Virus record (IMG/VR): IMGVR_UViG_3300035698_007952
Coordinates: 1-35,582 of that record
Length of the DNA: 35,582 nt
Direction: 5' to 3' (one strand)
From: a virus
The notes below the pieces were generated by a model, which had not been told where the DNA came from, did no database searches, and worked only from the letters and a program-made list of their open reading frames with translations. Shown piece by piece: positions 1,209 to 15,026 of this stretch (within the stretch, counting starts at the first letter, position 1; the number at the start of each line of letters is the position of its first letter). The translations under genes and the position numbers were made by a program.

Positions 1209-2717
1209 ATGATTTTAGACATTGAACAAAATAAGTATTCAAACTCAGTAAAGATTTCTTATATAGATTCTGACAGAAACAGACAAATCTTAGATATTAA
1301 GAAAAGGGAATTCTGGAAGTGGAAATATTATTCTGGACCGAACGAAGATACTAATTTCAAATCCTGGGATGGTAAGAGTGTTATTCGAATGTCTTACAGG
1401 GATGATGAAAATGTAGATAAGAAAAGTATTTGGGAATGGATGAATTCACAACCAGAACTTAAAGATGTTCTATATGAATTCAACATGCCAAAGATTCTAT
1501 TTTGTGATATTGAAACAGATATTCATGATGGTTTCCCAGATGTTACATTAGCTGCAGAAAAGATTACAGCGATAACAGTTTGTTGGAAAGATGATAATGG
1601 AAACATTCAAGTTATTATATTAGGAGAGAAAGAAAACTTCGACTATGATAAACAAAAGAAAATGAATGAATTCTTAACAGATTACTTCAAAGATGTAACT
1701 GATTTGAAAATCATCATGAAATTTATTCATATACCAGATGAAAAGAAATTACTAGAAGCATTCGTTAAAATATGTTCTAAGTTTCATGTTATCACTGGTT
1801 GGAACTTCATCAATACTTTTAGAATGAATTGGATGAACGATAATGGATTTGACTGGCCTTTCTTATCAAAGAGAATGGATAACCTTAACGTTGATTATAA
1901 ACCAATTTCCCCAACAGGTAACGTATCTAAGAAAAAAGATGTTGGTAAAGTACCAAGTCACTTTGCTGTTGTTGATTACATGTATTACTTTGATGCATTT
2001 GATAGAAGTATTAAGGTTAAAGAATCTAAAAGTTTAGATTTCGTTTCAGGTAAAGTTCTTAACGTTAAAAAATTAAAGTACGGAAACTATCCAGTAATGA
2101 ATGGTGATGTACTTAAAGAAATGTATGCTAATGATTATGACACTTATTGTTTATACAATGCAGTTGATACAATCTTAGTTTTACTTATACATGAAAAAAG
2201 ACAACCTTTTAGTGCAATCTTAGCACAAGGTAATGGTTCCGGTAATCATATTGATAAAGCAGATTCAGCTGTAAATGTTACCGAAGGATTAATGACTAGA
2301 GCATACATTCAAAAGAACAAAGTTCTACCTTTGATTGATATGTCACAAAGAGAAAAAGAAGCGTATGAAGGTGCATTTGTAAAGGCACCACTTGCTGGTT
2401 TGCATACAATAGTAGCATGTTTGGATTTTAGTTCACTATATCCATCATTATCTAGATTTTTAGAATTAGGTTTTGAAAACTTCGATAGGAAAATTCTTGG
2501 TGATATGAAAAAGTTTGATAATTACAAACCAGCATCTATCAAACTAGACAGACCTAAGAATGATGAAATTGTTAGTGTTACTGGTTGTGTATTTAAGAAA
2601 GGTCAATCAACATTGAAAACAGTATATGATGATTTATACAAAGCCAGAAAGATAAATCAGTACAGAGCAAAATTATGTGCAAAAATATCACATGAATTAA
2701 AAGAAAAACTTAAATAA
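1209..2717 (+). CDS. 43A: DNA polymerase gp43, N-terminal piece (exonuclease and palm motif A)
   Basis: A 502-residue family B replicative polymerase fragment. Seen in order: Exo I FCDIET (D100, E102), Exo II GWN then FDWPFL (N199, D215), Exo III YNAVD (D320) and palm motif A LDFSSLYPS (D406). It therefore carries the 3'-5' proofreading domain and the first catalytic aspartate. It ends in the fingers helix soon after KARKINQYRAK. Motifs B and C are absent here and lie in the two genes from 3704 onward, beyond the sliding clamp gene. The join between the C-terminus here and the N-terminus of the next piece appears to lose no conserved block, so this looks like a functional two-subunit split; split gp43 genes are known in some T4 relatives. 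Odd: Exo II has about ten extra residues between GWN and FD. Confidence 0.9.
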   Translation: MILDIEQNKYSNSVKISYIDSDRNRQILDIKKREFWKWKYYSGPNEDTNFKSWDGKSVIRMSYRDDENVDKKSIWEWMNSQPELKDVLYEFNMPKILFCDIETDIHDGFPDVTLAAEKITAITVCWKDDNGNIQVIILGEKENFDYDKQKKMNEFLTDYFKDVTDLKIIMKFIHIPDEKKLLEAFVKICSKFHVITGWNFINTFRMNWMNDNGFDWPFLSKRMDNLNVDYKPISPTGNVSKKKDVGKVPSHFAVVDYMYYFDAFDRSIKVKESKSLDFVSGKVLNVKKLKYGNYPVMNGDVLKEMYANDYDTYCLYNAVDTILVLLIHEKRQPFSAILAQGNGSGNHIDKADSAVNVTEGLMTRAYIQKNKVLPLIDMSQREKEAYEGAFVKAPLAGLHTIVACLDFSSLYPSLSRFLELGFENFDRKILGDMKKFDNYKPASIKLDRPKNDEIVSVTGCVFKKGQSTLKTVYDDLYKARKINQYRAKLCAKISHELKEKLK

Positions 2718-2749
2718 TTACATTTAAGTATAAACAGAAAAGTAAACAG

Positions 2750-3532
2750 ATGAAAAAAGTATTATTAAAAACGGTAGATTTAGTAAAGTTCAATAACTTT
2801 ATAGATACCTTGATTCCATTAAATGACACTGGTACAATCTATTTTAAGATTGACAAAGACACAATTAGTACAGATTCACACAATTCAGGTGGAACTATTA
2901 TTAAGAGTTTGAATTACGGTATTGGTGATATTTGTGGTGAATCAAACTTAGATAAAGTTGACAAACCAATTAAACTTTGTTTCTATGAAGGAAAGAAAGT
3001 AAAAAAAGCATTCTCTTTCCTAAGTGGAAATGAAATCAAATGTGAAATCACTTTCGCAGAATTAGAAGGTGAATATTTTGCAGAAACAATGATTATATCT
3101 AGTCCAAAGGTTTCTATCACATTAGATGCTGCAGACCCAACATTATTCGAATTCGCAAACGTTCCAGAAGAAGCAATTGTAGAATGTAAAAATGTTGACA
3201 ATGCTGATTGTAATTTCAGAATTACAGCAAACGAAGTTTTACAAATCCAAAAGTTTTTCGACTTTGATTCAAACGAAGAAATTGAATTCCAAGTTAATGG
3301 TGAAGTGAAAGTTTGTTCTGAAGGTGCGTATGAACAAGTAATCTCAGATGAATTTGAAGGTTTAGAAGGTGGTGGAATGAATTCATACAAAATTTCTAAA
3401 GACCTCTTCAAATTATTAGACCAAAATTCTTATGTAGTATATCCTGTTCTTGATGATACTAAAATAGTATTCAAAGCAGAAGACAACACAATGCAAGTTG
3501 TTATCACTTTACACGAAGATATAGAATTGTAA
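2750..3532 (+). CDS. 45: DNA polymerase sliding clamp (gp45-like)
   Basis: A 260-residue protein called as the trimeric processivity clamp of T4-type phages (T4 gp45 is 228 residues). Support: it begins with a short Lys-rich strand, runs as alternating beta segments with many acidic residues, and lies inside the polymerase gene block. The C-terminal strands (VVYPVLDDTKIVFKAED) look like the last clamp domain. In T4 the clamp also couples to the late sigma factor gp55, for which a candidate lies at 17704. Odd context: it sits between two halves of the polymerase gene, so the locus has been rearranged. No sequence motif is diagnostic by itself, so the call rests on fold pattern, size and position. 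Confidence 0.7.
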   Translation: MKKVLLKTVDLVKFNNFIDTLIPLNDTGTIYFKIDKDTISTDSHNSGGTIIKSLNYGIGDICGESNLDKVDKPIKLCFYEGKKVKKAFSFLSGNEIKCEITFAELEGEYFAETMIISSPKVSITLDAADPTLFEFANVPEEAIVECKNVDNADCNFRITANEVLQIQKFFDFDSNEEIEFQVNGEVKVCSEGAYEQVISDEFEGLEGGGMNSYKISKDLFKLLDQNSYVVYPVLDDTKIVFKAEDNTMQVVITLHEDIEL

Positions 3533-3555
3533 AATTTGGGAATATAAAAGTATTT

Positions 3556-3643
3556 GATTAAATAAAGAAAGGAACTATAATAGGACTCGAATCCTAAGTT
3601 CCTTTCTTTAAAATAATTAAACTTAATGTATTTAACACACCCA
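3556..3643 (+). repeat. Dispersed hairpin repeat, copy A
   Basis: GATTAAATAAAGAAAGG opens the element. A perfect 14-base stem (3563-3576 with 3597-3610) encloses a loop that holds a second near-palindrome, TAGGACTCGAATCCTA. A conserved tail follows (AATGTATTTAACACAC). Copy B at 14944-15026 shares the opening, inner palindrome and tail with a few changes. The stem has no clean T-run, so it may be a processing or stability structure rather than a classical terminator. It follows the clamp gene. Confidence 0.7.
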
Positions 3644-3688
3644 AATTATAGAGGATTGTATCAAATAAGAAGTAAAAATTTCAATAAT

Positions 3689-3696
3689 TATAAATA
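3689..3696 (+). promoter_or_regulatory. T4 late promoter-like TATAAATA
   Basis: An exact match to the T4 late -10 consensus TATAAATA, ending 7 bases before the ATG of the second polymerase piece. At that spacing the transcript would be almost leaderless, and a polymerase gene is normally early, so this may be coincidence in AT-rich DNA. Confidence 0.3.
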
Positions 3697-3703
3697 CATT
3701 TGA

Positions 3704-4444
3704 ATGATTAAAATAAGAGATATGACAACTGATGAAATAGAGAACTTTGATTATAGTTCTCTATCAGAATCTGATTTAGAATCAGCAATTAGACAATTAG
3801 ATGATGAATCCAATATAAAAAGTACATTAGAACAATCTAATAAGTTAGTACTTAACTCTATTTATGGAGCAATGGCATCGAATTACTTCTATTGGGCAAA
3901 TAAGGATTTAGCAGAAACTGTAACTATTCAAGGTCAAGATGCAATTAAGTATGCAGAAAAGGCCTTAGATTCCTATTTCCACAATACCTTTCATAAAGAT
4001 AAAGTAGTTCTTGCAAAATTAAAAGAACTATGTGATGATGTTATTTTAGACCCACAACCTTGTACAAAACCAACTGTAATTTATATTGATACAGATAGTG
4101 TTGATAAAGACACAATTATTAGTACAAATAAAGGAAATATTAGAATAGAAGATTTGTATAACGAAAATTCTATTAATGCAGGGGGAACCAAAAGTGGGCA
4201 CGAATCTGTTGAAACTAACAGAACAGTATTGAATTGGTCAGAATATAATGGACTGTACCAAGCACCAGTAAAAAGAATTATTAGACACAAGGTTTCTAAA
4301 TCAAAATGGAAACTTAAAACTAAATCTGGAAAGGAAGTGATTGTAACTAATGACCACTCTATGATTGTATTTAGAAATGGAATTAAACTAGAAGTTAAAC
4401 CATCTGAAATATTAAAAACTGATAAAATATTGTCAATTAGGTAA
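3704..4444 (+). CDS. 43B: DNA polymerase gp43, middle piece fused to intein N-half
   Basis: A 246-residue protein. Residues 1-131 are polymerase: fingers motif B KLVLNSIYG (K47, N51, Y54) and the first part of palm motif C, YIDTD. Residue 132 (Ser) starts an intein N-half of 115 residues: block A SVDKDTIIST, a RHK strand, and block B TNDHSMIV with the block B histidine. It ends ILSIR then a stop. The missing part of motif C (SAYVTFEE) follows an intein C-half in the next gene. Without trans-splicing this protein lacks the second palm carboxylate context and the thumb, so it should be inactive. Intein strands resemble those at the pol-c site of archaeal family B polymerases. No endonuclease domain is present. 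Confidence 0.9.
   Translation: MIKIRDMTTDEIENFDYSSLSESDLESAIRQLDDESNIKSTLEQSNKLVLNSIYGAMASNYFYWANKDLAETVTIQGQDAIKYAEKALDSYFHNTFHKDKVVLAKLKELCDDVILDPQPCTKPTVIYIDTDSVDKDTIISTNKGNIRIEDLYNENSINAGGTKSGHESVETNRTVLNWSEYNGLYQAPVKRIIRHKVSKSKWKLKTKSGKEVIVTNDHSMIVFRNGIKLEVKPSEILKTDKILSIR
4097..4441 (+). other. Split intein N-half in polymerase motif C
   Basis: 115 residues, Ser at position 1. The block A-like start, block B T-x-D-H, and the strand LEVKPSEI are all visible. The break falls after block B, at the usual canonical split position where an endonuclease domain would sit. Partner: 4522-4650. Expected spliced extein: YIDTD joined to SAYVTFEE. Confidence 0.88.
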
Positions 4445-4452
4445 CTTTGTAG

Positions 4453-4485
4453 TTTATATAGATTAATATAGAAAGTCTATATAAA
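4453..4485 (+). other. Hairpin between polymerase intein halves
   Basis: A perfect 10-base stem, TTTATATAGA (4453-4462) with TCTATATAAA (4476-4485), around a 13-base loop. It occupies nearly half of the 77-base gap between the two intein-bearing genes and ends 36 bases before the next ATG. There is no T-run, so it is unlikely to be a terminator. It might affect translation of the downstream half or mark a deletion scar. Function unproven. Confidence 0.5.
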
Positions 4486-4521
4486 ATATGAATTTAAAAG
4501 AACAAGTAGAAATAATAGTAA

Positions 4522-4650
4522 ATGAAATACGAAATAGCAGAAATAGAATACATTGAGTGTATAGGAGAATTTGATGATGAATATGTTTATGATATAGAAG
4601 TTGATGATGATACCCATACATTTATTGCAAATGATATATTGGTTCATAAT
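4522..4650 (+). other. Split intein C-half, polymerase
   Basis: 43 residues ending DILVHN with terminal His-Asn, followed by Ser+1. Block F carries the DTHTF pattern. It complements the N-half at 4097-4441; together they make a mini-intein of 158 residues, the expected size for one lacking an endonuclease. Confidence 0.88.
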
Positions 4651-5472
4651 TCTGCTTATGTGACTTTTGAAGAAGTTGCAGAAAGAATCAATTGGACAGG
4701 TAATGCAACAGATTTAGTTTTGACTATTAATGAAACTAGATTAGCGGATTATCTTAAAAGAGTATTCAATAAGTATGCAGAATCTTACAACACTGATAAT
4801 TACTTAGATTTCGAATTAGAAACAATCGCAAAATCAGGTATATGGGTTAAGAAAAAGAAATATACACAAGACATTGTTTGGGCAGATGGTAAGTTTTATG
4901 AAAGTGGAACTTATACAAAAACAACTGGTCTTGAAATTATTCGATTAACCACACCTCCGTTTTGTAGACCAGAATTATCAACATTGGTACAATGGATTTT
5001 CGATAAAGGAAAATCATTTACACAACGAGATATTACAATAGAATTATTAAAATTAAAGAAACGTTTCGCAATTGCCGATATAGAAGAGATTTGCATTACA
5101 ACAGGTATTGGTGATTATGAAAAGTATATCTTAGATGATAAAGATAGTTTAAATTATGCAAGTGGTTGTGGTACACATGTTAGGGGTGCTGCTATATACA
5201 ACATGTATCTTAATAATTCTACATACGCAAACAAATACGAACCTTTAAAGACAGGTGATAAAGTAAAATGGTATTATGCCAAATCTCATAATAAAGAATA
5301 TAATGTATTCTCTTATAAAAGGGGTTCTTATCCAAAGGAGTTTGCACCAGAAGTAGATATTGATTTAATGTTTGAAAAGACTGTTATCAATCCGTTGAAT
5401 AACATACTTCAAGCAATGACAGGTATTAATAAACTATCTGGCTCATTAAAAATCAAAAAACGTTTATTCTAA
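4522..5472 (+). CDS. 43C: Intein C-half fused to DNA polymerase gp43, C-terminal piece
   Basis: A 316-residue protein. The start is fixed by an in-frame TAA directly before the ATG. Residues 1-43 are an intein C-half: block F YVYDIEVDDDTHTFIAND and block G ILVHN, ending His-Asn. Ser44 is the +1 nucleophile and opens the extein SAYVTFEE, completing motif C (DTDS) from the upstream gene. The rest is palm and thumb, including KKKKYTQDIVW, the lysine-rich block that follows motif C in family B polymerases. It is closely followed by uvsX, 14 bases on. Trans-splicing would give a 404-residue subunit that must then assemble with the 502-residue exonuclease/palm piece. Confidence 0.9.
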   Translation: MKYEIAEIEYIECIGEFDDEYVYDIEVDDDTHTFIANDILVHNSAYVTFEEVAERINWTGNATDLVLTINETRLADYLKRVFNKYAESYNTDNYLDFELETIAKSGIWVKKKKYTQDIVWADGKFYESGTYTKTTGLEIIRLTTPPFCRPELSTLVQWIFDKGKSFTQRDITIELLKLKKRFAIADIEEICITTGIGDYEKYILDDKDSLNYASGCGTHVRGAAIYNMYLNNSTYANKYEPLKTGDKVKWYYAKSHNKEYNVFSYKRGSYPKEFAPEVDIDLMFEKTVINPLNNILQAMTGINKLSGSLKIKKRLF

Positions 5473-5486
5473 AAATAATTTAAAAT

Positions 5487-5795
5487 ATGGCTAAAACAGT
5501 TAAGAAACACAAAGATGAAGATGGGATATTTGCTGAATTAACAGCATTGAATCCTTTCGGGACTAATTCTTTCGGAACAGATGATACCTATAAAAACAAT
5601 GTGTGGATTGATACAGGTTCATGGATTCTTAATGCTGCAATGAGTGGTTCAATTAAGAAAGGTATTCCAGGAAAGAAAATAACAGCACTAGTTGGTGAGT
5701 CAGGTTGTTTACCGAAAGAAGAAGTTGTTCGATTATATATACTAAAGAGTATAGATAATTATGATAGAGAAATTATTAACGAGGAGCCTATCTAA
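5487..5795 (+). CDS. uvsX-N: UvsX recombinase N-terminal piece fused to intein N-half
   Basis: A 102-residue protein. Residues 1-73 are the N-terminus of a RecA/UvsX strand-exchange ATPase, ending in the first half of the Walker A P-loop (ALVGESG). Cys74 begins a very short intein N-half, CLPKEEVVRLYILKS plus about 14 residues, before the stop at 5793. The second half of the P-loop (SGKT) lies at the start of the extein in the gene at 6195. Alone, this piece cannot bind ATP. In T4 UvsX promotes recombination-dependent replication together with the gp41 helicase and gp46/47 nuclease, all encoded nearby. The mature protein would be 411 residues (T4 UvsX is 391). Confidence 0.88.
   Translation: MAKTVKKHKDEDGIFAELTALNPFGTNSFGTDDTYKNNVWIDTGSWILNAAMSGSIKKGIPGKKITALVGESGCLPKEEVVRLYILKSIDNYDREIINEEPI
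5706..5792 (+). other. Atypically short split intein N-half (UvsX)
   Basis: 29 residues starting at Cys1, holding only the block A region. Block B is in the downstream partner at 6195. Split sites this early are the hallmark of the rare atypical split inteins such as AceL-TerL. Cys1 with Ser+1. Confidence 0.85.
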
Positions 5796-5819
5796 CACTA
5801 AATCTTTATTTTGTGTTAA

Positions 5820-6011
5820 GGACGAAAACAAAAAATAAGAGTATATTCTAAAGGCGAGAAACTAAATATATTTCAGTTTTTAGAATATGCTATTATTCAC
5901 TGGAATTTTAATGATAAAGTGGAAAGCGAGTATTTAGAACACTTGTATGAATATTATTGTACTTTGTATATGGAATTTAATGTTAATATGTTAACAAGAA
6001 AAGGAGAATAA
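5820..6011 (+). pseudogene. Startless reading frame in the UvsX gap
   Basis: An open frame of about 63 codons between two stops. It contains protein-like segments (KLNIFQFLEYAIIHW and YLEHLYEYYCTLYMEF) but has no good start codon. It lies between the UvsX halves, overlapping the start of the endonuclease remnant in another frame. It may be the eroded front of the same inserted gene or a different passenger. No family recognised. Confidence 0.35.
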
Positions 6012-6192
6012 CAAAACAACATTTAAACCAATATGGGATAAAAATTTAACTTGGGACAATGTCAAAGAAAACGATGACCATAAAATAAAAGTAGCAAAAA
6101 ACAAGGGATATGAAATTATAGTTGTTTGGGATTTTGAGAGTTTTGACATCAAAATACAAAAAATACAAAACACTATCGACATTAAACAATAA
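5995..6192 (+). pseudogene. Homing endonuclease remnant (Vsr-like C-terminus) in the UvsX gap
   Basis: A 65-codon frame without a start codon ends 2 bases before the ATG of the UvsX C-terminal gene. It reads LTWDNV, then HKIKVAKNKGYEIIVVWDFE. The KIKVAK-x-x-GY-x-[IV]-IV-[IV]W segment matches the end of a fuller remnant inside the helicase gap (10168-10389). A GY..IIVVW strand is typical of the core of Vsr/EDxHD-type endonucleases that travel with fractured, split-intein genes. The catalytic N-terminal half is missing, so it is dead. Together with the frame at 5820-6011 it accounts for the 399 bases between the UvsX halves. Confidence 0.6.
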
Positions 6193-6194
6193 AT

Positions 6195-6662
6195 ATGAAA
6201 ATAGAAATTATTAAAAAAGAGTTAACTCATTGTGGATATGACATCGACAAGTTAACTGATGTGGAATTAACTAAGTTATTTAATACTCATTGCGAAGAAC
6301 ATTCTGAATTAGTTAAAGTACAAGATTTAATTGAAAATAAACTATCTAACTTTATAGTTATAGATACACCAGATGGATTTCAAGAAATTAGTACTATTTA
6401 TAATAAAAAGGAAAGACCTATATATGAAATAGTATTGACTAATGGATTTAAAGGACTATCTTCTAATGACCACTTATATGAAACACCAACTGGATGGGTT
6501 AAAGCCGAAGTACTTAAAAAATCTGATTTAGTATTGACTAAAGATGGAGTTTACGAGGTATCTACTATAAATAAAAAAGACAAAGAATTAGTATATGATT
6601 GGACAGTAGAACACGAAAACCATAGATACTGGTCTGGTGTTGGAGGTATTAGTTCCCATAAT
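6195..6662 (+). other. Long split intein C-half (UvsX)
   Basis: 156 residues including block B and the terminal SSHN. Combined with the 29-residue N-half it forms a 185-residue intein. Having block B in the C-half defines the atypical split. Spliced extein: GESG joined to SGKT. Confidence 0.87.
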
Positions 6663-7679
6663 AGCGGTAAAACCTTTCTAACACTGAATGCTGTTTTCAT
6701 GGCACAACAAATGGGATTTACACCTATTTATTACGATACAGAGGGTGCAATTGACCCAGAATCTTGTGAAAAGTTTGGTATTGATTTAGAAAACTTTAGA
6801 TATGAACCAGTATCTGATGTTGAATTACTTAAATCAATGTTTGCAGTTTTCATTAAAAGTCTAAAGGACTTGAAAGTAGCAGGTAAACCATCAAAGAAGA
6901 AATATATGTTGATTCTTGATTCAGTTGGTATGTTAGCAAGTGCTAAAGAGATTGAAGATGCAAGAACACAAAATCATACTGCAGATATGACTAGAGCGAA
7001 ATCAATTCGTTCTTTCTTTAGAATTATCACATCAGATTTGAATTCACTAAGTATTCCAATGATATTCACAAACCACGTAGGGGTTAATATTGGTGGATAT
7101 GGAGACCCAGTTGTTCAAGGTGGTGGAGGTGGTGTATTATTTTCACCAAGTGTTACGTTATTCTTATCAAGAGCAAAATTGAAAGATGATAAAGATGATG
7201 ATAAAAAACAAACAGGTGTTATAGTCACAGCAAAGACTGGTAAGAATAGATTCGCACAACCTAAAGTAATTAAATTCCCTATTTTCTTTGATAGACCATT
7301 TAATAAATATGCAGGTGTTCAAGATTATTTCGGATGGGATTCCGTAGGTATTGCTAAAGGTAATATCATTACTGAAAAGGAATATAATAAGTTGACCGGT
7401 GCAGCAAAAGAAAAAGTAAGACCTTTCTCACCTAATGATAGTGAAGAGGTTATGTTCTTTGAACCAAAAGAATCTGCAAGAAAGTATATAATTGAACATT
7501 TAGGTGAAGCAGTTGATACTAGAAACTTATGGACATCTAGAGTATTTGACCCATTAGAAGATAGATTTGATGCATTAATCAGAAAAGATTTCGAATTTGG
7601 TTCACAAGAAGTAGAAGATGAAATCAATTCTTTACTAGATGAAGAAGAAGAAGCATTCTATGCTGAAAAAGTAGATTAA
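6195..7679 (+). CDS. uvsX-C: Intein C-half fused to UvsX recombinase C-terminal piece
   Basis: A 494-residue protein. Residues 1-156 are a large intein C-half: NFIVIDTPDGFQEI (52-65), block B LSSNDHLYET (88-97), and block G GISSHN (151-156). Residue 157 (Ser+1) opens the extein with SGKTFLTLNAVF, completing the Walker A loop. The RecA core continues with Walker B YMLILDSVG, a MIFTNHVG strand and the Gly-rich loop VQGGGGGVLFSPS, and ends in an acidic tail (EEEEAFYAEKVD), common in recombinases. The first 50 or so intein residues are predicted helical and Lys/Glu-rich, possibly residual linker or endonuclease-associated sequence. A terminator hairpin follows. Confidence 0.9.
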   Translation: MKIEIIKKELTHCGYDIDKLTDVELTKLFNTHCEEHSELVKVQDLIENKLSNFIVIDTPDGFQEISTIYNKKERPIYEIVLTNGFKGLSSNDHLYETPTGWVKAEVLKKSDLVLTKDGVYEVSTINKKDKELVYDWTVEHENHRYWSGVGGISSHNSGKTFLTLNAVFMAQQMGFTPIYYDTEGAIDPESCEKFGIDLENFRYEPVSDVELLKSMFAVFIKSLKDLKVAGKPSKKKYMLILDSVGMLASAKEIEDARTQNHTADMTRAKSIRSFFRIITSDLNSLSIPMIFTNHVGVNIGGYGDPVVQGGGGGVLFSPSVTLFLSRAKLKDDKDDDKKQTGVIVTAKTGKNRFAQPKVIKFPIFFDRPFNKYAGVQDYFGWDSVGIAKGNIITEKEYNKLTGAAKEKVRPFSPNDSEEVMFFEPKESARKYIIEHLGEAVDTRNLWTSRVFDPLEDRFDALIRKDFEFGSQEVEDEINSLLDEEEEAFYAEKVD

Positions 7680-8780: not shown

Positions 8781-8805
8781 GTTTTAATATACAAATAACT
8801 TGTAT

Positions 8806-10128
8806 ATGATAAACACCAACGAATTCGAAAAGATTTTTTTACTATACGCTCTAGATAATCCAGTTTATTTAGAGCCAGTAGAACTAGGTTTCTTTTCGGT
8901 ACCTGAAATAGACTTACTTGCTACAATATCTAAAAGATACTATGCTAAATTTAAGAAACCACCATCGAAAGATAATTTGTGGATGCTTATTAGTACAGGT
9001 GAATTAGAAGAACGATGTCCTAAAATCTTTTTTGATGAAATATTCAAGAAAAATATTAAGGATTTTGATGTTGAATGGGTAGAAGAAACAGCTCAATCTT
9101 GGATTAAATGGAAACACTTAGATTCGTCTATTGTTGATACTGTTGAATATATTAACACAACAAAGGTTACACCTGAAAATGTAGGTGAAATTGTTCAAAG
9201 TGTTAAGAATATGATTAATGGTCGTAACAACATTACTTTTGATGATGATTTAGGTACAGACTTTTTCGAATACCAATCCCACGTTCGGAACCCAGAAGAC
9301 CAAATAAGTTCAGGTTATGATTTCATTGATAAGAATATTGGTGGTTATTCAAAAGGAACATTAACTGTTTATGTTGCACCACCAAACACAGGTAAATCGT
9401 TATTCCTTTGTCAAGATGCAGCAAACTATTGTAAACAAGGTAAAAATGTTTTATATATCTCATTAGAGATGGGTGGTCAAAAAGTTCACAAGAGAATTGG
9501 TGCTGATATTTTCAATATCAGTGTGAATGATTACGATAAGAAAGCAGATGATGCTGATTTCATGAATCAAAAGATTCGAAATTTCAAAGACCTTAGTGTT
9601 GTTGCCCCTGGTGCATTGACAGTAAAGAATTATGAAACTAGTAATGCGACAGCTGATGATATAGATAACTTCATTGGAAAGGTACAAGATATTACAGGTA
9701 TCGTTTATGATGTAGTATTAGTCGATTATGTAAACATTATGAAGGATAAGAGAAATCCTAATTCTGAATCTACATACTTGAAGATTAAAAATATTAGTGA
9801 AGATATGAGAGCAGTTGCACAAAGAAGAAATATAGTATTGTTAAGTGCAACACAAACTAACAGATGTTTAAGTTTAGATACTAAAGTACAAACTAAAGAG
9901 GGAGAAATGGAAATATCTAAAATAAAAGAAGGTGACTTTATTATGGGAACAGAAGATTGGGTTAAAGTTACTAAAGTTTACCCAATAGAAACACTACCTA
10001 AAGTATTGAAACTTAAAACCAAATCAGGAAAAGAAATTGTTTGTGGTCCTAATCACTTATTCCCAATAGGAGATAAATTAGTAAAAGCATCCGACTTAGT
10101 AATTGGAGACAAATTAACAAGTAAATAG
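8806..10128 (+). CDS. 41-N: Replicative helicase gp41 N-terminal piece fused to intein N-half
   Basis: A 440-residue protein from the ATG at 8806 (a TTG two codons earlier is less likely). It is a DnaB/RecA-type hexameric 5'-3' helicase: an N-terminal helical domain, Walker A APPNTGKS, the strand NVLYISLEM, Walker B VVLVDYVNIM, then LLSATQTNR at the helicase H4-like motif. Directly after this Arg an 87-residue intein N-half starts: CLSLDTKVQT, KVLKLKTKSGKEIVC, block B GPNHLFPI, and a stop after DKLTSK. The remaining C-terminus of the helicase lies in the gene at 10400. The intein closely recalls the split gp41-1/gp41-8 inteins from phage metagenomes. Trans-splicing would give about 436 residues (T4 gp41 is 475). 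Confidence 0.92.
   Translation: MINTNEFEKIFLLYALDNPVYLEPVELGFFSVPEIDLLATISKRYYAKFKKPPSKDNLWMLISTGELEERCPKIFFDEIFKKNIKDFDVEWVEETAQSWIKWKHLDSSIVDTVEYINTTKVTPENVGEIVQSVKNMINGRNNITFDDDLGTDFFEYQSHVRNPEDQISSGYDFIDKNIGGYSKGTLTVYVAPPNTGKSLFLCQDAANYCKQGKNVLYISLEMGGQKVHKRIGADIFNISVNDYDKKADDADFMNQKIRNFKDLSVVAPGALTVKNYETSNATADDIDNFIGKVQDITGIVYDVVLVDYVNIMKDKRNPNSESTYLKIKNISEDMRAVAQRRNIVLLSATQTNRCLSLDTKVQTKEGEMEISKIKEGDFIMGTEDWVKVTKVYPIETLPKVLKLKTKSGKEIVCGPNHLFPIGDKLVKASDLVIGDKLTSK
9865..10125 (+). other. Split intein N-half, gp41 helicase
   Basis: 87 residues, Cys1, block B GPNHLFP, ending in a dead-end loop at the canonical split site. N-extein ...SATQTNR. Partner 10400-10513. Confidence 0.92.
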
Positions 10129-10167
10129 GTGTTTGTGTTGCAGATAATAGCATACAAAAAATCATAG

Positions 10168-10389
10168 AGCAAGACTATTATAGAGTTTAATGGTGACTAT
10201 TGGCACTGCAATCCTATGATTTATGAACATGACCAATTAGTAAAATTTCCAAATAGAACAATACCCGCTAATACTAAATGGGAAGAAGATAAAAAGAAAA
10301 TTAAAGTTGCTAAAGATAATGGATATGATGTTATTGTTATTTGGGAAAAAGATTTTAGAAATAATAAACAAAAGTATTACAACAATTAA
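10168..10389 (+). pseudogene. Homing endonuclease remnant (Vsr/EDxHD-like) in the helicase gap
   Basis: A 73-codon open frame preceded by a stop at 10165 and lacking a proper start. It reads IIEFNGDYWHCNP, then TKWEEDKKKIKVAKDNGYD and VIVIWEKD. The E-F-N-G-D-Y-W-H-C-N-P motif carries the Glu, Asp and His expected for the Vsr-like homing endonuclease family found between split-intein gene halves. The N-terminal part of the domain is missing, so it is a decayed copy. It lies precisely between the helicase intein halves and shares its C-terminal segment with the remnant at 5995-6192. Confidence 0.75.
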
Positions 10390-10399
10390 AAAGAATATT

Positions 10400-10513
10400 A
10401 TGTATTTAGATGAAATAATAGAAATAGAAACAATAGACAATATAGATACCGTAGATATTGAAGTATCAGGTAAAGATAGATTATTTTATGCTAATAATAT
10501 TTTAACTCACAAT
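10400..10513 (+). other. Split intein C-half, gp41 helicase
   Basis: 38 residues ending LFYANNILTHN, with Ser+1. With the 87-residue N-half it makes a 125-residue mini-intein, near the minimum size for a splicing domain. Confidence 0.9.
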
Positions 10514-10765
10514 AGTGGTTTTGAGAGTTCTAATATAGGATTACAACACATTGCAGAATCAGCTGGTCTTGCAGCAACATGTGATAACATCTTAGCGATT
10601 ATACAAACTCCGGAAATGAATCTAGAAAATTTCTATTGGTTGAAACTCCTAAAAGTTAGAGATGGGAGAGGGAAAAATATCAAGTGTAAAATAGATATTG
10701 ATTATGAATATATGAGATTACGCGAAACTAATACTGTCATTCTGGATACCGGTGATGATGGTTAG
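10400..10765 (+). CDS. 41-C: Intein C-half fused to gp41 helicase C-terminal piece
   Basis: A 121-residue protein. The start is at the ATG of MYLDEIIEIE, which gives a 38-residue intein C-half of the usual gp41 type; upstream in-frame ATGs from 10307 overlap the endonuclease remnant in another frame and are unlikely. Block F is TVDIEVSGKDRLFYANN and block G ILTHN, then Ser+1. The extein SGFESSNIGLQHIAESAG is the helicase C-terminal RecA-fold end, completing T-N-R-S-G. It continues through DNILAIIQTPEM and ends VILDTGDDG. It is followed by a hairpin and another endonuclease remnant. Confidence 0.9.
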   Translation: MYLDEIIEIETIDNIDTVDIEVSGKDRLFYANNILTHNSGFESSNIGLQHIAESAGLAATCDNILAIIQTPEMNLENFYWLKLLKVRDGRGKNIKCKIDIDYEYMRLRETNTVILDTGDDG

Positions 10766-14943: not shown

Positions 14944-15026
14944 GATTAAATAAAGAAAGGGAATTATTGGACTAGAATCCTATCCCTTTCTAAAATTAAT
15001 TTAAACTAATGTATTTAATCACACGA
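14944..15026 (+). repeat. Dispersed hairpin repeat, copy B
   Basis: Opens GATTAAATAAAGAAAGG like copy A. The stem AGAAAGGGA (14954-14962) pairs with TCCCTTTCT (14983-14991) around an inner GGACTAGAATCC, with the tail AATGTATTTAATCACAC. The stem bases differ from copy A but pairing is kept by matching changes on both arms, which suggests the structure is what matters. It contains a TTAAATA late-type motif at 14946-14952. Confidence 0.7.

What the first reader, a model, noticed from the sequence alone, without database searches (positions are those of the whole stretch)
1209..5472. DNA polymerase encoded in three pieces with two different kinds of break
Motifs run Exo I-III and A in piece 1, B and half of C in piece 2, rest of C and thumb in piece 3. 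The break between 1 and 2 (fingers) has no intein and would leave a two-subunit enzyme; the break between 2 and 3 has a split intein in Y-I-D-T-D|S. The sliding clamp gene is lodged in the first break. Combining a non-covalent split with a trans-splicing split in one polymerase is very unusual.
Basis: partly seen in the sequence, partly recalled or inferred. Interest (0 to 1): 0.85.

Follow-up and report, generated by a model that had tools for sequence, protein, structure and literature searches.

The report
Phage DNA polymerase in three pieces
A bacterial virus encodes its DNA-copying enzyme as three separate proteins, two of which should be welded together by a self-splicing split intein while the third simply docks; this is real, but the same layout was already deposited for Aeromonas phages, so it is a further and well-documented case rather than a new kind of system.

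Summary
A T4-type PolB (gp43) is encoded as 43A (1209-2717), 43B1 with an N-intein (3704-4444) and 43B2 with a C-intein (4522-5472). The ORF at 2750-3532 is a sliding clamp by fold (Foldseek to PCNA, E 3e-12). The claim that the combination is very unusual is not supported. Aeromonas phage Aes509 is annotated with exactly gp43A / gp43B1+N-intein / gp43B2+C-intein. Tenacibaculum PTm1, Prevotella Lak-C1, LR756500 and several IMG/VR contigs share it. Published work on homologues covers both mechanisms: the Aes123 PolB1 split intein trans-splices, and 43A+43B of phage 25 co-purify and are active. The first break is old: all 34 members of a well-supported clade of mostly giant phages keep 43A and 43B as separate genes. 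The clamp is not lodged in the break; it is a conserved neighbour of 43B. The second break is young and mobile: the closest outgroup has the same intein unsplit, the next has none. All three split inteins of the window (pol, uvsX, gp41) carry remains of one Vsr-like homing-endonuclease family. New member of a known kind.

The parts
1209..2717 (+). 43A: N-terminal domain, 3'-5' exonuclease, palm part with motif A, first finger helix of a T4-type PolB (502 aa)
   Evidence: phrog_2062 1.1e-53, phrog_262 7.6e-53; Foldseek to RB69 gp43 6e-22; AF2 helix 468-501 ends the piece
2750..3532 (+). sliding clamp (gp45/PCNA fold, 260 aa)
   Evidence: no convincing sequence hit; AF2 pLDDT 87; Foldseek to PCNA 3.4e-12, TM about 0.7; homologues next to 43B in most clade loci
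3533..3703 (+). spacer between clamp and 43B1 with a strong hairpin; related copy at 14944-15024
   Evidence: fold z -4.96; 98% identical to L090, absent in L091; second copy 81%
3704..4096 (+). 43B1 extein: second finger helix, motif B, palm up to motif C ...YIDTD
   Evidence: phrog_1918, phrog_27191; motif positions
4097..4444 (+). N-intein, 115 aa, Ser1, block B VTNDHS, then stop
   Evidence: PF14890; matches Aes intein structure 9HTH, 3.2e-11
4445..4521 (+). second break: 77-nt spacer with remnant of a homing-endonuclease reading frame
   Evidence: compared with 210-nt spacer of L090, whose frame resembles the N terminus of the L092 endonuclease
4522..4650 (+). C-intein, 43 aa, ends ILVHN
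   Evidence: PF14890; PolB16 intein 8cpo 5.6e-7
4651..5472 (+). 43B2 extein: Ser+1, rest of palm and thumb; C terminus GSLKIKKRLF is a possible clamp-binding tail (inference)
   Evidence: phrog_1918 2e-42, phrog_262 8e-42
5487..7679 (+). UvsX recombinase in two pieces (5487-5795, 6195-7679) with a second split intein (short N-intein) and an endonuclease remnant at 5995-6189
   Evidence: phrog_97; HEG profile E 8e-4
8800..10765 (+). gp41-type helicase in two pieces (8800-10128, C part within 10307-10765) with a third split intein and an endonuclease remnant at 10168-10386
   Evidence: phrog_19; HEG profile E 3e-20; intact 399-aa endonuclease at the same place in L090
27527..28480 (+). clamp loader large subunit (gp44-like), consistent with a T4-type replisome
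   Evidence: phrog_168 1.4e-65

Best explanation
This is the T4-type replicative polymerase of a phage from a mostly giant-phage lineage, built from three translation products. 43B1 and 43B2 join through a split intein placed directly after the catalytic YIDTD of motif C (Ser1 and Ser+1 nucleophiles, no catalytic cysteine), giving a continuous 43B that reads YIDTDSAYV. 43A (exonuclease, motif A, first finger helix) and spliced 43B (second finger helix, motifs B and C, thumb) then hold together non-covalently across the finger tip and the palm. The clamp, encoded next to 43B, serves the assembled enzyme. The finger break is old and fixed in the lineage. The motif-C intein is a mobile element; its break most likely arose when a Vsr-like homing endonuclease gene split it, and the endonuclease then decayed. 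Shown here: gene anatomy, motif and intein completeness, clamp fold, conservation, phylogenetic order, endonuclease remnants, recent transfer of the intein. Inferred from published homologues: trans-splicing and A-B association.
For: Pieces tile the polymerase. Intein halves are complete and match 9HTH, the crystal structure of the trans-splicing Aes123 PolB1 intein. Co-purification and activity of 43A+43B of phage 25 are reported in PMC2988022. Same layout in Aes509, PTm1, LR756500, Lak-C1, L090, L091, L092. Tree: A and B separate in 34 of 34 (SH-aLRT 100) and 24 of 24 (100/100). Window, L090 and L091 (split intein) are sister to L111 (same intein in one 563-aa ORF), then L010 (no intein). 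dN/dS 0.05-0.25. Endonuclease remnants in all three intein breaks. AF2 of 43A alone folds the exonuclease well but leaves 388-464, with motif A, at pLDDT under 50, as expected if that half-palm needs 43B. Relatives with complete genomes have no other PolB.
Against: No splicing, binding or activity was tested. The contig is incomplete, so another polymerase in this phage is possible. The intein state changes at least 11-12 times on the tree, so loss, re-fusion and transfer cannot be told apart from repeated splitting everywhere. PTm1 and MA9V are long branches and the root is a midpoint. Low pLDDT at 388-464 may also reflect a shallow alignment of 14 sequences. The endonuclease remnant in the pol break itself is short (66 codons, in L090).
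Confidence: 0.9

Rival explanations
1. All three pieces work as a non-covalent complex and the intein halves are dead or only cleave, so the enzyme is a heterotrimer.
For: Non-covalent assembly of split gp43 is known for two pieces. Intein halves could decay.
Against: Ser1, block B, HN and Ser+1 are intact; intein halves are under purifying selection; the unspliced product would carry 115 and 43 extra residues next to the catalytic aspartates.
Confidence: 0.05
2. The pieces are remnants of an inactivated polymerase and an intact one lies elsewhere in the genome.
For: Only 35.6 kb of this phage is held.
Against: dN/dS 0.05-0.25 in all pieces; same architecture in independent contigs; relatives PTm1, MA9V-2, LR756500, Lak-C1 hold no other PF00136 match.
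Confidence: 0.03
3. The first break was created by insertion of the clamp gene into a continuous polymerase gene in this lineage.
For: In window, L090, L091, L111 and PTm1 the clamp lies directly after 43A and upstream of 43B.
Against: 43A and 43B are separate in all 34 clade members, often kilobases apart, with the clamp staying next to 43B.
Confidence: 0.04

Closest known systems
Aeromonas phage Aes509 (and AS-gz) gp43A / gp43B1 / gp43B2
   Same: Same two kinds of break: fingers break without intein, motif-C break with Ser1/Ser+1 split intein; annotated as such in JN377902
   Different: Intact Vsr-like endonuclease between B1 and B2; 43A and 43B1 are neighbours without a clamp gene between them; only 24-32% identical in sequence; falls in the other half of the tree
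Tenacibaculum phage PTm1 split DNA polymerase
   Same: 43A, clamp homologue, 43B1 with N-intein, 43B2 with C-intein in the same order
   Different: Extra ORFs in both breaks (DUF7487 ORF before 43B1; ORF annotated VSR endonuclease between B1 and B2)
Prevotella phage Lak-C1 and LR756500
   Same: Three pieces with both breaks
   Different: 43A about 10 kb (LR756500) or over 200 kb (Lak) from 43B; ORFs between the intein halves; Lak read here with TAG recoded
Aeromonas phage 44RR / 25 split gene 43
   Same: Non-covalent 43A/43B split (PMC2988022)
   Different: No intein in the description; short untranslated spacer or seg-type endonuclease in the break instead of a clamp gene
Aes123 PolB1 split intein (9HTH)
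   Same: Insertion in motif C, Ser nucleophiles, 120/39 versus 115/43 aa halves
   Different: One non-catalytic Cys in the window's C-intein; activity untested
Fractured genes with split inteins and a Vsr-like endonuclease family (Dassa et al. 2009; not readable here, from memory)
   Same: Split inteins in phage replication genes with endonucleases between the halves
   Different: Only decayed endonucleases remain in this window

Membership tests
T4-type family B DNA polymerase (gp43) | Exo I-III and polymerase motifs A, B, C in order, complete across pieces | tested here: met
Split intein | Nucleophile at position 1, block B TxxH, C-terminal HN, nucleophilic +1 residue, halves in separate ORFs | tested here: met
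   Ser1, VTNDHS, ILVHN, Ser+1; PF14890
Split intein | Ligates exteins in trans | not testable with these tools
   Shown for homologue Aes123 PolB1 (PMC11923092)
Three-piece gp43 of Aes509 type | Fingers break without intein plus motif-C break with split intein | tested here: met
Three-piece gp43 of Aes509 type | 43A associates with spliced 43B into an active enzyme | not testable with these tools
   Reported for two-piece 43A+43B (PMC2988022)
Fractured gene (split intein with endonuclease in the gap) | Intact endonuclease ORF between the intein halves | tested here: not met
   Pol gap only 77 nt; remnants only in all three gaps; intact in relatives L090, L092, L111
44RR-type split gene 43 | Short untranslated intercistronic element separating 43A and 43B | tested here: not met
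   The clamp gene lies between them
Sliding clamp (gp45/PCNA) | Clamp fold | tested here: met
   pLDDT 87 and Foldseek E 3.4e-12
Sliding clamp (gp45/PCNA) | Ring assembly and polymerase binding | not testable with these tools
   no complex prediction available

The most novel reading that the evidence does not exclude
A large clade of mostly giant phages uses an obligate two-subunit replicase (43A plus 43B, with a clamp gene fixed beside 43B) as its ancestral state, on which a motif-C intein repeatedly cycles through absent, unsplit, endonuclease-split and bare-split forms; the window, L090, L091 and L111 catch this cycle at three replication and recombination genes within one close group.
Probability: 0.55. 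Interest if true: 0.5.

Novelty: new member of a known kind. Interest (0 to 1): 0.38.

Why it matters
It corrects the reading of the fingers break from an oddity to a shared trait of a whole clade, and gives a close natural series (no intein, unsplit intein, split with endonuclease, split with decayed endonuclease) for testing how split inteins arise. The window's intein is a further Ser/Ser split intein candidate of possible use in protein engineering.

Tried and rejected
Clamp alignment A4 was too diverse for a collection scan; clamp identity was settled by structure instead. The tail match NEIRNRRN between the pol spacer frame and the L092 endonuclease was not counted as independent evidence, because that stretch overlaps the conserved C-intein start in another frame; only the N-terminal match was used. 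The hairpin spacer at 3533-3703 was considered as a 44RR-like split-causing element and rejected: similar copies lie after other genes (14944-15024; L090 1678 and 17606). No terminator-like site passed the simple scan and promoter-like sites are at chance level. No Rfam match, so no group I intron was detected in the breaks. Dassa 2009 could not be read. Frequencies among fetched loci are not population estimates: scans are capped and the 43B1 query favours intein carriers.

Full report
Observation. Three ORFs at 1209-2717, 3704-4444 and 4522-5472 tile one T4-type family B DNA polymerase: 43A covers Pfam DNA_pol_B positions 16-138, 43B1 155-243, and 43B2 the last third of phrog_262. Motifs Exo I-III and A lie in 43A, B and YIDTD of C in 43B1, the rest in 43B2. 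The AF2 model of 43A resembles RB69 gp43 (E 6e-22), ends in one long helix (468-501), and is poorly defined mainly where the half-palm lacks its partner. By sequence, 43A 465 aligns with RB69 466 (to within the numbering of the variant shown) and 43B1 16 with residue 526 of a T4-type polymerase, so the first break lies near residues 500-515, between the two finger helices, with nothing obviously missing.

Second break. The intein starts with Ser after YIDTD and ends ILVHN before Ser+1. The N half matches 9HTH, the Aes123 PolB1 intein structure, and that intein trans-splices in vitro (PMC11923092). The halves are 115 and 43 aa, close to the typical split of about 100 and 40 aa described there.

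Clamp. ORF 2750-3532 has no convincing sequence relative in the annotated libraries, but a model from 14 homologues (pLDDT 87) matches PCNA and 9-1-1 clamps (E 3e-12, TM about 0.7). A clamp homologue is found next to 43B in most loci of the clade, so the clamp belongs with 43B rather than being an insertion into the polymerase gene.

How common. The identical two-break scheme is annotated in Aeromonas phage Aes509 (gp43A, gp43B1 with N-intein, Vsr endonuclease, gp43B2 with C-intein) and is present in AS-gz, PTm1, LR756500 and Lak-C1, and IMG/VR contigs L090, L091, L092, L098/L044. A T4-phage review reports that 43A and 43B of phage 25 co-purify and have polymerase activity (PMC2988022). MIJ3 is a published case of the intein break alone (PMC6892783).

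Order of events. On a tree of 70 polymerases the 34 rows that group with the window (SH-aLRT 100) all have 43A and 43B as separate ORFs; a careful tree of 40 rows gives 24 of 24 (100/100). Several further finger breaks appear on the other side (Aes509, L056/L057, L065/L075, L066/L070). The state of break 1 needs 3-4 changes, the intein state 11-12. In the window's own group, L010 has no intein, L111 has it unsplit in one 563-aa ORF, and window, L090 and L091 have it split. Break 1 is therefore old, and in this group the splitting of the intein is the younger event.

Mobility and endonuclease. Between window and L090 the intein halves are 95-99% identical while the flanking exteins are 74-81%; dS is 0.19 and 0 in the intein halves against 0.8-1.5 in the flanking polymerase exteins and 43A, so the intein was exchanged recently. 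The 210-nt pol spacer of L090 holds a 66-codon frame that resembles the start of the L092 endonuclease (blastp E 2e-4 in a 21-protein set; first of 2001 against 2000 shuffles); the window keeps a further-deleted version. A profile of these endonucleases hits the window at exactly two places, 10168-10386 in the gp41 gap (3e-20) and 5995-6189 in the uvsX gap (8e-4); the best decoy is 0.3. L090 has an intact endonuclease in the gp41 gap, L111 in the uvsX gap, and L091 has single uvsX and gp41 ORFs of 406 and 434 aa, taken as intein-free. Intact endonucleases of this set score weakly with DUF559/MTES_1575, and the Aeromonas one is annotated as Vsr.

Function. All pieces show dN/dS of 0.05-0.25 where it could be computed, and relatives deposited as complete genomes have no other PolB. 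The most likely mode is therefore trans-splicing of 43B followed by non-covalent assembly with 43A. Splicing, association and activity remain untested for this phage.

Verdict. Real, correctly read in anatomy, but a new member of a known kind.

Noticed in passing
window 5487-5795, 5796-6194, 6195-7679: UvsX split by an intein with a short N half (about 29 aa, CLPKEEVV...) and an endonuclease remnant in the gap; an atypical early split.
   Followed up: partly
window 8800-10128 and 10129-10765: gp41-type helicase split by an intein; 221 nt of the gap are 99.5% identical to L090, which still has the full endonuclease that the window has mostly lost.
   Followed up: yes
window 3553-3640 and 14944-15024; L090 1678, 9838, 17606: Dispersed hairpin element of about 90-100 nt shortly after stop codons (TTTGATTAAATAAAG plus a GGAAC/GTTCC-type stem), present at the clamp-43B1 spacer of window and L090 but absent in L091.
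   Followed up: partly
L005 8544-8738 and 9001-9525; L100 10010-10150 and 10202-10753: 43B1 is interrupted once more near motif B, possibly by a group I intron (compare phage 25), so the AS-gz polymerase gene would be in four pieces.
   Followed up: no
L047 3737-5776 and 9935-11470: 43B (with unsplit intein, 679 aa) lies upstream of 43A, the reverse gene order.
   Followed up: no
L014 14672-15685; L092 7588-8574: Ribonucleotide reductase large-subunit C-terminal pieces carrying a C-intein, further split-intein genes near the polymerase.
   Followed up: no
window starts at 1209, 2750, 3704, 4522: No Shine-Dalgarno-like sequence before the starts; this would fit a Bacteroidota host, as would the relatives on Tenacibaculum, Chryseobacterium and Prevotella.
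   Followed up: no
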